The notes under the pieces: model-generated
What the model was told of the DNA's origin: nothing
The model's input: only the letters and a program-made list of their open reading frames with translations
Databases searched by the model: none
Shown: in pieces, positions 45,535 to 49,696 of the stretch
Layout of the letters: every line of letters starts with the position of its first letter
How positions within the stretch are numbered: position 1 is the first letter of the stretch
Position numbers and translations under genes: made by a program
Origin: Lacrimispora xylanolytica
GTDB lineage: Bacteria > Bacillota > Clostridia > Lachnospirales > Lachnospiraceae
Length of the DNA: 64,000 bases
Assembly: GCF_026723765.1 (NCBI RefSeq)
Contig: NZ_CP113524.1
Span: 4,179,501 to 4,243,500 of the forward strand
Direction: 5' to 3'

Positions 45535-47241
45535 CTACTCGATTCTCAGAGTAATTACGTCCCCTGCTGTTAGGCTTAGTATAATTGAGTTAGAGAATGT
45601 GCCCACCATTATCTCGGTTGGAACGGCGGCAGAATTAACATCTACTCCGTTAACGGCTACGGTAACCGTAGCGTCAATATTATTGCTTATCGAAATACTA
45701 TAATTAATCTTATATACGCCGGTTTGCTCTATTGTTATAGGTGCAGTACCAGGTGTATGGGTAATTCCCTGCAAGATCCCGTTATTACTAAAAAGAACAT
45801 CTCCTGATAATAATACTGCTGTTTCGGAGTCCTCTGCCAATGGTGTAAATACATTTCCAAAAACAGTTATGCCTGGTCCTGTGTCACCAGTTGGGCCGGT
45901 TGGACCTGTTGCCCCTGTGGGACCAGTCGCTCCCGTTGGGCCGGTATCCCCTGTGGGGCCAGTCGCTCCTGTTGGGCCAATACCCGTTGGACCAGTGTCT
46001 CCCGTTGGGCCGGTTGCTCCTGTCGGACCGGTCGCTCCTGTGGGACCCGTCGCTCCTGTGGGACCGGTTGCTCCTGTCGGACCAGTGGCTCCTGTTGGGC
46101 CCGTCGCTCCCGTTGGACCCGTCGCTCCGGTCGGACCGGTTGCACCCGTCGGGCCAGTGGCTCCTATCGGGCCAGTGGCTCCTGTCGGACCGGTGGCTCC
46201 TGTTGGACCAGTGACTCCTGTCGGGCCGGTCTCTCCCGTTGGACCAGTGGCTCCTGTTGGGCCCGTGGCTCCGGTCGGACCCGTCGCTCCCGTTGGACCC
46301 GTTACCCCTGTCGGGCCGGTCTCTCCTGTTGGACCCGTGGCTCCCGTTGGTCCGGTCGCTCCTGTTGGACCCGTCACCCCAGTTGGACCCGTGGCTCCTG
46401 TTGGTCCGGTCGCTCCTGTTGGTCCGGTCGCTCCTGTCGGGCCGGTCTCTCCTGTTGGACCCGTGGCTCCTATCGGGCCTGTCGCTCCTGTGGGACCGGT
46501 TGCTCCCGTTGGGCCGGTTACTCCGGTCGGACCCGTCGCTCCCGTTGGACCCGTGGCTCCTGTTGGACCACTAGCTCCTGTTGGACCCGTCGCTCCTGCC
46601 AGACCCGAAGTTCCCGCCGGGCCAGGGGCTCCTGTCGGACCCGTCGCTCCCGTTGGACCCGTGGCTCCCGTTGAACCTGCAGCTCCTGTTGGACCACTAT
46701 CTCCTGTTGGACCTATATCTCCCGTCGGACCGGTAGCTCCTGTAACACCAGGGACTCCTGTGGGGCCGGTATCTCCTGTCGGACCAGTGGCTCCCGTGGG
46801 ACCGGTTGCTCCTGTGGGACCGGTATCTCCTGTTGAACCAGTGTCTCCGATTGGGCCGGTCGCTCCTGTCGGACCGGTATCTCCCGTTGGACCAGTTTGA
46901 CCGGTTGGACCTGTTGTTCCAGCTGTACCTGTAGGACCAGTGGGGCCAGTGAATCCAGTTTCGCCGGTCGCTCCTGCCGGACCGGTATCTCCTGTTGGGC
47001 CGGTTGCTCCCGTTGGGCCTATATCTCCCGTTGGGCCCGTAGCTCCTGTTGGGCCTATATCTCCCGTTGGACCGGTGACTCCTGTTGGACCCGTAGCTCC
47101 TGTTGGGCCGATATTACCTGTTGGGCCAGTGGCTCCTGTTGGACCGGCATTTCCCGTCGGACCTGTCACTCCAGCCGGACCAGTGGCTCCCGATGGTCCA
47201 GTTGCCCCTGTCGGACCGGTGGCTCCGTTTAACTTATGCAC
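45535..47241 (-). CDS. Collagen-like Gly-X-Y repeat protein C1 with BclA-type C-terminal domain
   Basis: A 568-residue frame from a GTG at 47241. After MHKLN it is almost entirely GPTGAT-type Gly-X-Thr triplets (about residues 6-445), then a ~120-residue beta-rich domain ([16 protein letters not shown] to GDVITLRIE) like the trimerising tips of BclA-type exosporium proteins. There is no signal peptide. The GTG lies seven bases after the recombinase stop, with no real ribosome site, and the first codons lie on a recombination-site-like sequence. I infer that this is the 3' part of a longer gene that begins at 49696 and is interrupted by the 2-kb element. Removing the element gives one in-frame protein of 715 residues. 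Confidence 0.85.
47222..47238. mobile_element. Candidate attL of the recombinase element (at collagen gene C1)
   Basis: GCTCCGTT-T-AACTTATG. The left arm is one half of the reconstructed attB palindrome; the right arm is one half of the attP dyad. It shares the core GTTTAAC (47227-47233) with attR. The same 17 bases occur at the start of collagen gene C3, and with one change at C2. Confidence 0.6.
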
Positions 47242-47247
47242 ATACTT

Positions 47248-48846
47248 CTATTCTTCTGGTAAAGGATTCTTGAAATTGTAGTGAATAAAGACATTCCTTT
47301 CTTTGTCTATTTCGATTCTTTCAATTAATTGAGTTAAAATGGTCTTATCTGGTACCTGGAATTGAATGATATCTGTAAGAACCTTTTCATAGTTATCACT
47401 ATCCTGGTTGTTTGAGTTTAGCACCTGCTGCAATTTTTTCATTTGTTCGTATCGTGTGTTTACATTTTCCTTTTCTTTAATATAGTCATTGATGAGAGTA
47501 ATAAAAGTATCATTTGTTATGATTTTATTTACCTTATCCTCGTATAATTTTTTCATAAAGGTCTGTATTTCCATACGTCTTTTCTCCAGCTGAACCAGCT
47601 CAACACTGTACATATCCGCTTTTTCCTTTTTTTCTAAAGAGCCAAATTGTTTATAAAAATCATTGGGTAATGCTTTTAAAGAGATTTTTCTAAGCTCCTC
47701 CACAATAAATGAATCCAGGGTTTCTTCATCAATATAATGACTGCAGCAATAGTTTTTTCCGTGTCTTAAATAAGTCATACAGTTCATCTTATGTTTCCCA
47801 TTTACCTGTTTATAAGTGAGCTTAGAACCACATTCTTTGCAATACACAAGCCCATTTAAAAGATGCTTCGCACCGCTCTTTCTCCCATAAAGAACGGTCT
47901 TTTTATCTATTAATTTTTGTACTAAATTATATTGTTCCTGCTCTATGATTGGTTCATGAGTATTCTCAACTATAATCCATTCTGATTGTTTATAGCTCTT
48001 CATTTTCTTAGTTTTATAGTTTATCTTCTCTGATCTTTTTTGTGCCATATGGCCCAGATAGGTTGGATTTGTAAATACATTTTTTACCATTCCCTGGTTC
48101 CATAACCTTCGATCGGTCCTCTTGTTTTTATAATTACAGAAGGTCTCTTTGTAAGCAATGGGGGAGGGAATATTTTCTTCGTTTAAGATTTTAGCTATGG
48201 CGCCCATGCTGTTGTCATTGATATATAGATTGTACATACGTTTCACGATGGCCGAGGCATAGGGGTCAACAATTAATTTATTTTTGTTATCAGGGTCCTT
48301 TAAATATCCGTAAGGGGCAAACGCACCAATGAACTGGCCCCTTTTTCTTTTTTCATCAAATACAAAACGGATTTTCATTGAAATATCTTTTGCGTACATG
48401 TCATTTAAAAGAGATTTGAACGGTCCAATATCACTGACGCTGCCTGGAGCGCTGGTGTCTATGCCATCACTTAAAGCAATATATCGGATATTTTTTTCCG
48501 GGAAGTACCGTTCCAGATAATAACCGGTCACTATATAATCACGTCCTAATCGTGACAGATCTTTTGTTATAACTAAATTGATTTTTTTACTTTCAATATC
48601 ACCTAATAACCGTAAAAATCCGGGGCGGTCAAAACGCAAACCTGAGTATCCGTCATCAATATATACCTGATAACAAGTCCAGCCCTGTGAAAGTATGTAT
48701 TGGATTAAAATATTTCTTTGGTTCTCAATACTAATGGACTGACCGATTGATTCGTCTTCCTTTGATAGCCTTAAATAAACAGCAACTCTGTATTCATTTC
48801 TGAATTTACTAAGCTCTGACCTGGTACGGTTATCGTTAACAATCAT
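47248..48846 (-). CDS. Large serine recombinase (resolvase/invertase N-domain, recombinase and zinc-ribbon domains)
   Basis: A 532-residue protein. ATG at 48846 follows AAGGAG by seven bases. The catalytic N-domain has YLRLSKEDE, the Ser in SISIENQR (about residue 37-42 region), and [11 protein letters not shown]; then a Recombinase domain ([29 protein letters not shown]), a zinc-ribbon (YCKECGSKL, later NYCCSHY) and a coiled-coil C-terminus. This is the layout of phage and sporulation-element integrases such as SpoIVCA, TnpX and SprA. It recombines specific att sites without a host factor for integration. It is the only protein of recognised function in the candidate element. Confidence 0.95.
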
Positions 48847-48850
48847 TCTA

Positions 48851-49030
48851 TCACTCCTTTTCGTCTTCAATACAACTTATGCCTGCAGAAAGATTTTTCT
48901 TGTTTTGAGGGTTCTTTAAGATATAATCATTGGACTTTAGATAGTTTAAAATAGTAATGGTAAATAGCTTTTTGAATTCACTACCCTCCTCTTTAAAACC
49001 AGAGACCGCTTTTAGATGACCTTTACTCAT
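48851..49030 (-). CDS. Small ORF coupled to the recombinase gene; candidate directionality factor
   Basis: A 59-residue frame starting MSKGHLKAVSGFKEEGSEF and ending SCIEDEKE. Its last codons contain the ribosome site of the recombinase gene (AAGGAG, stop TGA directly after), so the two are translationally coupled. AAGG lies about ten bases before its ATG. It is lysine-rich with a predicted helix around KKLFTITILNYLKSND. I do not recognise a family. Serine integrases need a small recombination directionality factor for excision, so its size and position make it a candidate; this is pure inference. Confidence 0.55.
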   Translation of the reverse strand: MSKGHLKAVSGFKEEGSEFKKLFTITILNYLKSNDYILKNPQNKKNLSAGISCIEDEKE

Positions 49031-49231
49031 ATTAACTGCCTTAACGTTCTTTATTAACCATATGCAATTATAGTTGTCTACTTAGATAGATTCCTACCTT
49101 AAATTTCGACATATTCATGTTATTTTATCAGATGTTGTATGGATAAATAGTCTGAATATATTGTGTATTGTTTTTCATATATGAGTATTTTGTCTTTATT
49201 TTGAGAAGTTATCATAATATTTTTTTGATTC

Positions 49232-49696
49232 TTACCACAAGTTTAACGGAGCAGTTGCTCCTGTTGGGCCAGTCGGGCCAGTTCCACCGGAACCCTCCCC
49301 GCCAATCACTACAAGTGTTGCTTTGACTGGGACTATCGTGGGATAATACACTTCCGCTGTACTGTTATTTTTAAGCTCTACCGTAACAGGTACTTCATTG
49401 ACTACAAGTATGGCCACACCTACAACCTCACCTGTCTTTATAGGTGAATTGCCTACAAGGAGGTCCCCCTGAGATGATACAAGAGCAAAGCCCACACCAT
49501 TAGAGGATGCAGAAGATTGGGTGTCTACCCACCAGTCAAATTCATATCTACCCGGTTGAAGCAAAGTTATGGTACCGGTCGCGCTGTTATAGCTGACGGA
49601 ATCAGATATAACCACAATGGAATCAAAAATTACATTATCATTTACCCCAACGGTTCCATCTATTAACCGCTCTATCTGTAAAACTGTGTCGCTCAT
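49232..49696 (-). CDS. Beta-rich (C1q/TNF-like) head protein ending in a collagen stub
   Basis: A 154-residue protein with a good ribosome site (AAGGAG). The first ~132 residues are a beta-sandwich-like domain (ITLLQPGRYEFDWWVDTQ, SSNGVGFALVSSQGDLL, VPVTVELKNNS) like the jelly-roll domains at the ends of bacterial collagen-like proteins. Residues ~134-146 are the beginning of a Gly-X-Y region ([15 protein letters not shown]). It then ends abruptly, PLNLW and stop, exactly at the candidate attR. I infer that the real gene continues into collagen gene C1 when the 2-kb element is absent: codons for P-L-N then run straight into GATGPTG. Confidence 0.8.
   Translation of the reverse strand: MSDTVLQIERLIDGTVGVNDNVIFDSIVVISDSVSYNSATGTITLLQPGRYEFDWWVDTQSSASSNGVGFALVSSQGDLLVGNSPIKTGEVVGVAILVVNEVPVTVELKNNSTAEVYYPTIVPVKATLVVIGGEGSGGTGPTGPTGATAPLNLW
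49236..49252. mobile_element. Candidate attR of the recombinase element (at the end of the head gene)
   Basis: CACAAGTT-T-AACGGAGC. The left arm is half of the attP dyad; the right arm is half of the attB palindrome. The core GTTTAAC (49241-49247) falls on the codons for Leu-Asn in the same phase as at attL. Confidence 0.6.

What the first reader, a model, noticed from the sequence alone, without database searches (positions are those of the whole stretch)
47222..49252. A 2-kb serine-recombinase element splits a head-plus-collagen gene; in-silico excision restores one in-frame protein
Seen: attL (47222-47238) and attR (49236-49252) share the direct core GTTTAAC, placed on the same Leu-Asn codons in both flanking ORFs. 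Joining at the core fuses the head gene (49696 to the core) to collagen gene C1 in frame: 2148 bases, 715 residues, with the Gly-X-Y tract continuing after PLN. The rebuilt junction GCTCCGTT-A-AACGGAGC is a perfect 17-bp palindrome, and the circle junction CATAAGTT-A-AACTTGTG is a 7/8 dyad. Such symmetry is what attB and attP of a serine integrase need, and it was not used to choose the join. The head gene has a good ribosome site; C1 has none. Known: skin, SPbeta and related elements interrupt sporulation genes and are excised in the mother cell by serine recombinases. Inference: this is a minimal element of that kind controlling a spore-surface filament.
Basis: partly seen in the sequence, partly recalled or inferred. 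Interest (0 to 1): 0.92.

Follow-up and report, generated by a model that had tools for sequence, protein, structure and literature searches.

The report
Recombinase-split filament gene, three tails
A bacterium with sporulation genes keeps a surface-filament gene in pieces, one front end and three collagen tails, beside a DNA-joining enzyme whose sites would fuse front and tail in frame; the joining itself has not been seen.

Summary
A 2,014-bp segment with a large serine recombinase separates a "head" gene from collagen tail C1; joining the sites in silico gives one 715-aa frame. Two more collagen genes upstream, C2 and C3, begin with the same half-site in the same frame, headless and without a ribosome site; joined to the head they give 811 and 843 aa. 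In 25 Lacrimispora genomes these sites occur only in five, all with this recombinase. In two of them the head-C1 interval is only about 220 bp; the one aligned is an internal-deletion form that keeps both ends, with the recombinase in a neighbouring unit. Tail domains without usable starts are under purifying selection. Uninterrupted head-collagen paralogs exist in the same genome. Its sigK is also split, by a 4-kb serine-recombinase element. Best reading: a gene-intervening element of the skin/gin kind, probably extended to one head serving several silent tails. Excision, timing and tail choice are inferred; no joined junction was found in 25 genomes.

The parts
49246..49696 (-). Head gene, about 150 aa up to the core; weak C1q-like similarity; good ribosome site
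49236..49252 (-). attR-type site GCTCCGTTAAACTTGTG at the end of the head
48851..49030 (-). 59-aa ORF, conserved in 5 of 5 genomes; candidate recombination directionality factor (role inferred)
47248..48846 (-). Large serine recombinase (Resolvase, Recombinase, Zn_ribbon_recom); start taken at ATG 48846
47222..47238 (-). attL-type site CATAAGTTAAACGGAGC at the start of tail C1
45535..47241 (-). Collagen tail C1 with BclA_C domain; no ribosome site
52000..52016 (-). attL-type site CATAAGTTAAACGTAGC at the start of tail C2
50025..52016 (-). Collagen tail C2 (silent, no head or ribosome site); joined to the head in silico 811 aa
54258..54274 (-). attL-type site CATAAGTTAAACGGAGC at the start of tail C3
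52187..54274 (-). Collagen tail C3 (silent, no in-frame start upstream of its site); joined to the head in silico 843 aa

Best explanation
A surface-filament gene is kept in two parts by a minimal excisable element: attR, a 59-aa ORF, a large serine recombinase, attL. When the recombinase, probably helped by the 59-aa protein as directionality factor, recombines the head's attR with a tail's attL, the DNA between them leaves as a circle and the head is fused in frame to the tail, which only then can be translated. The split form is what is inherited; joining most likely happens in cells that need not pass it on, above all the mother cell of sporulation. Shown here: the anatomy, site conservation, reading frames, selection on parts without usable starts, a relative's copy reduced to its ends, and a split sigK in the same genome. 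Inferred: that recombination occurs, its timing, the role of the 59-aa protein, and the use of tails C2 and C3.
For: Sites and in-frame join; palindrome test. Tail-type and head-type sites each in 5 of 25 genus genomes, the same five, and all five carry the recombinase. G007 interval of 236 bp including both sites aligns to positions 1-44 and 158-187 of the window's element and to its last 61 bp: an internal deletion that kept both ends; the sequence of G011 is nearly the same. Purifying selection: C1 C-terminal domain window/G011 7 non-synonymous of 29 changes, p 1e-8; C2-type domain G145/G021 p 1.6e-5, although 0 of 9 tails has an upstream start with ribosome site. Head and a C1-type domain lie in frames of the same stated length in 9 genomes, the window's included. 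sigK split by a serine-recombinase element in the same genome.
Against: No joined junction in 25 genus genomes with up to 3 mismatches nor in viral contigs. Palindrome axis on a base rather than between two. G021 has GTTTAAC at the head and GTTAAAC at C1, a centre mismatch that could hinder recombination. The head lacks an exact sigma-K-type promoter. The directionality role of the 59-aa ORF rests on position and size; a profile from relatives finds the Lacrimispora copy only at E 3. Very close genome pairs have too few changes to test selection and give w up to 0.7.
Confidence: 0.72

Rival explanations
1. Heritable phase variation: rare excision in growing cells turns the filament gene on for a lineage, without a link to sporulation.
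For: Nothing ties this head promoter to a sporulation sigma factor; surface proteins are common targets of phase variation (general knowledge).
Against: All 5 genomes with the locus are in the split state and 0 of 25 show a joined junction; losing the circle would be one-way; joining to C2 or C3 would remove the head from the chromosome.
Confidence: 0.15
2. A selfish or decaying serine-recombinase insertion that has simply broken a collagen gene; the tails are remnants.
For: G007 holds a decayed head relic and G007/G011 a decayed tail relic; the recombinase family is common in mobile DNA.
Against: Tail domains evolve under constraint (p 1e-8 and 1.6e-5); long frames stay open; both att sites are kept where the recombinase gene is gone; the orphan tails keep the half-site while their upstream flanks differ (identity 0.26-0.49 against 0.90-0.93).
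Confidence: 0.1
3. Only head-C1 is ever joined; C2 and C3 are relics of old units and their half-sites no longer work.
For: Relic units exist in G007/G011, pointing to ancestral tandem units; the P arms of C2 and C3 resemble that of C1 over only about 9 bp, short for a serine integrase site.
Against: The C2-type tail is headless in the window and G145, and seemingly in G021 (contig gap), yet its C-terminal domain evolves under constraint.
Confidence: 0.35

Closest known systems
gin element in gerE of Bacillus cereus ATCC10987 (PMC5595907; abstract, section 5 and discussion read)
   Same: Non-phage element with serine recombinase, short shared core, splits one gene, excised in sporulation with a small helper (GirX).
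   Different: gin has 31 genes and three recombinases in a regulator gene; here one recombinase and one small ORF in 2 kb, in a filament gene, plus extra tails with the same half-site. Excision shown there, not here.
skin element of C. difficile sigK with CD1231/CD1234 (PMC5025042; passages seen)
   Same: Large serine recombinase with a small directionality protein (72 aa there; 59-aa candidate here) in an element that splits a gene.
   Different: 19 genes in that element; sigK instead of a structural gene; no alternative partners.
SPbeta in spsM of Bacillus subtilis (PMC4191935; search listing and start of abstract only)
   Same: Excision during sporulation rebuilds a spore-envelope gene.
   Different: A full prophage; one product.
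R64-type shufflon (recalled, no call)
   Same: One constant front part with alternative C-terminal parts.
   Different: Tyrosine recombinase, inverted sites and reversible inversion there; serine recombinase and all four sites in one direction here.
BclA-type collagen filament proteins of spores
   Same: Collagen repeats and BclA_C domain.
   Different: Here the gene is split and has an N-terminal domain with weak C1q-like similarity.

Membership tests
Sporulation gene-intervening elements (skin, SPbeta, gin) | Element splits one host gene between direct core repeats; joining restores the frame | tested here: met
Sporulation gene-intervening elements (skin, SPbeta, gin) | Element carries its own serine recombinase | tested here: met
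   Met for head-C1 in the window, G145 and G021; in G007 and G011 the head-C1 interval has none and the gene lies in a neighbouring unit
Sporulation gene-intervening elements (skin, SPbeta, gin) | Small directionality factor in the element | tested here: inconclusive
   Conserved 59-aa ORF just upstream of the recombinase; similar-sized ORFs at that place in 47 of 80 related loci, seven of them training loci
Sporulation gene-intervening elements (skin, SPbeta, gin) | Excision during sporulation in the mother cell | not testable with these tools
   No reads or expression data; no exact sigma-K-type promoter at the head
Sporulation gene-intervening elements (skin, SPbeta, gin) | Uninterrupted relatives of the split gene | tested here: met
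   Paralogous architecture only: head plus C1-type domain in one frame in 9 genomes; the orthologous locus itself is never uninterrupted
Large serine recombinases | Resolvase, Recombinase and zinc-ribbon domains | tested here: met
fdxN element recombinase XisF (NCBIfam NF041201) | Score over curated cut-off | tested here: not met
   106.5 bits against 375
Shufflon (R64 type) | Inverted sites allowing inversion of tail segments | tested here: not met
   All four sites lie in one direction

The most novel reading that the evidence does not exclude
One head serves three tails. The recombinase can join the single head site to any of three tail sites. With C1 the join stays on the chromosome; with C2 or C3 head and tail would be fused on an excised circle of about 2.8 or 5.0 kb. 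Such a choice would wreck a lineage but is harmless in a mother cell that dies, so each spore could be coated with one of several filaments: a bacterial, somatic cut-and-join diversification of the spore surface.
Probability: 0.4. Interest if true: 0.92.

Novelty: new variant of a known kind. Interest (0 to 1): 0.76.

Why it matters
The gene-intervening elements I read about restore one gene. This one is about 2 kb with only a recombinase and a small ORF, sits in a surface-filament gene, has in a relative a 220-bp form that keeps only its ends, and shares its half-site with extra silent tails. If joining is confirmed it shows how developmental DNA excision can be used to make alternative proteins in a terminal cell, and it offers a very small natural excision cassette to study.

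Tried and rejected
Already joined forms: 0 of 25 genus genomes with up to 3 mismatches; exact joined and circle junctions in viral contigs, none. Another serine recombinase between two head paralogs (own genome 2979000-2998900): other genes lie between and I saw no split gene. Family libraries and PDB sequence searches gave nothing useful for the 59-aa ORF; its predicted model is weak (mean pLDDT 69), so I made no fold search. Sigma-K-type promoter: exact motif upstream of 3 of 7 head-family genes (0.2 expected in shuffles, P 0.002) but not of this head, which has an approximate -10 only; not used as evidence for timing. No head homolog in plasmid records; phage records hold only distant recombinases (658 records, all below 60% identity). 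Papers: 0 held all the terms; the listings (24 of 24 shown; 20 of 44; 15 of 71; 12 of 21; 6 of 6) named no such system in titles or abstract starts. This covers only the open-licence library.

Full report
What is there. On the minus strand the order is C3 tail, C2 tail, head, attR-type site, 59-aa ORF, large serine recombinase, attL-type site, C1 tail. The recombinase has resolvase, recombinase and zinc-ribbon domains; by sequence its best solved relatives are domains of TnpX and TP901-1 integrase. Its start is taken at ATG 48846, where the end of the 59-aa ORF supplies AAGGAG as ribosome site (read).

More than one tail. The half-site CATAAGTTAAACG(G/T)AGC begins C1, C2 and C3 alike and in the same frame. 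The 39 bp upstream of these three sites are unrelated (identity 0.33 in each of three pairs), while site plus tail start are 0.90 identical over 40 bp. Joined frames are 811 aa (C2) and 843 aa (C3). In the whole genome AAGTTAAACGNAGC has 14 places with up to one mismatch: three exact, at these tails, and 11 with one mismatch, one of which is the head site read on the other strand. A scan of the ten other loci found no frame rich in GPTG/GATG motifs.

Relatives. Of 145 genomes searched, the window's included, three others have the recombinase at 95, 78 and 77%; the next best are below 50%. A same-species genome, G145, that was not in that search has it at 96%. Tail-type and head-type sites were each found in 5 of 25 genus genomes, the same five. 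By equal contig length and position G021 is [Clostridium] aerotolerans DSM 5434 and G007 L. algidixylanolytica SPL73, so I take the genus to be Lacrimispora. G145 has one upstream tail, with the start of C3 and an end of C2 type, then head, recombinase, C1. G021 has a C2-type tail end before the head on one contig and a headless tail start on another; they may be one tail. In G007 and G011 the head and C1 cores are 219 bp apart. The G007 piece aligns to positions 1-44 and 158-187 of the window's element and then to its last 61 bp, so an internal deletion removed the ORF and the recombinase and kept both ends; the G011 sequence is nearly the same. There the recombinase lies just upstream, before a tail relic whose end resembles C3 and, in G007 only, after a head relic. 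This suggests ancestral tandem units of head, recombinase and tail, of which each lineage kept one recombinase and one good head (inference).

Selection. Of 9 tails, 0 have an in-frame start upstream of or at the site with a ribosome site, and 3 have no upstream in-frame start at all; inside the first 150 nt of collagen one GTG, in G145, has a GGAG before it. Yet the C1 C-terminal domain shows w of 0.07-0.10 in the pairs with more than a few changes (window/G011: 7 non-synonymous of 29 changes, p 1e-8), and the C2-type domain 0.23-0.30 in its three pairs (G145/G021 p 1.6e-5, window/G145 p 2.2e-6). For the head w is 0.07-0.11, for the recombinase 0.06-0.11 and for the 59-aa ORF 0.22-0.29, leaving out the very close pairs window/G145 (head, ORF) and G011/G007 (head, ORF, C1), which have 0 to 4 changes and give values up to 0.7. 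The C2-type domain differs at 36% of residues between the window and G145, although their recombinases differ at about 3%, so this tail changes fast or was replaced. The p values treat changes as independent and are rough.

Uninterrupted homologs. All 25 genus genomes have head homologs at E 1e-10. In the window's genome one open frame of 740 aa holds both a head-type and a C1-type domain (from 3192998 and 3194801), and hits of the same stated frame length, side by side, show the same in G145, G021, G007, G013, G010, G023, G003 and G004. The closest head outside the five, in G020 (69%), runs directly into collagen until its contig ends.

The 59-aa ORF. A profile built from seven small ORFs upstream of related recombinases, without the Lacrimispora ones, was run on 16,507 short ORFs from the 80 loci. 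Of the first 60 rows, 47 lie just upstream of the recombinase, from 47 of 80 loci, the seven training loci included; 13 rows lie elsewhere. One Lacrimispora copy (L076) appears at E 3, so membership by sequence is weak and position and size are the better arguments. In C. difficile CD1234 is a 72-aa protein needed for excision but not integration (PMC5025042, passages).

Sporulation context. sigK in this genome is in two pieces 4.3 kb apart, with a 556-aa serine recombinase ending next to the 3' piece. At E 1e-30, 22 of 25 genus genomes show both pieces, two (G019, G021) only the first, and one (G011, 67% complete) none; in G005, G016 and G018 the pieces are on different contigs (my count from the rows). 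So these bacteria probably already join a split gene in the mother cell (inference from sigK elsewhere). Whether this head gene is expressed there is not shown: exact sigma-K-like promoters precede 3 of 7 genes of the head family but not this one.

How it would work. With a directionality factor, attR x attL(C1) excises a 2,014-bp circle and fuses head to C1 on the chromosome. attR x attL(C2 or C3) would cut out a circle bearing the fused head-C2 (2,764 bp) or head-C3 (5,022 bp) and leave the recombinase behind (distances). The latter makes sense only in a terminal cell. That is inference.

Doubts. No joined form was seen in any collection searched. The palindrome axis lies on a base. G021 has a core mismatch. 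The P arm common to the tails is about 9 bp, short for a serine integrase site (family knowledge). These lower the tail-choice reading more than the plain excision reading.

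Noticed in passing
L209 (G000:C1:2133500-2140500): sigK is split by about 4.3 kb that holds a glycoside-hydrolase-like ORF, another ORF and a serine recombinase; both sigK pieces are found in 22 of 25 genus genomes. 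A search for papers with sigK, skin element and Lachnospiraceae found none.
   Followed up: partly
L078-L155, ORFs ending just upstream of the recombinase: A family of small ORFs sits upstream of many related serine recombinases (47 of 80 loci, training loci included); possible directionality factors without a library model among those searched for the window's copy.
   Followed up: partly
L057 6023-7606: Another serine recombinase, about 38% identical to the window's, lies between a LacI-like regulator and a VanW-like protein (names by eye); most genus genomes have one best match of about that identity. Not checked whether these are at the same place.
   Followed up: no
window 50025-50450 and L074 about 8740-9160: The C2-type C-terminal domain is only 64% identical between two genomes of one species whose recombinases are about 97% identical.
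   Followed up: partly
window 38459-45417 (+): A row of about 700-aa beta-propeller-like repeat proteins (by eye), with a short truncated copy at 40666-41053, faces the collagen genes; similar genes flank the locus in relatives.
   Followed up: no
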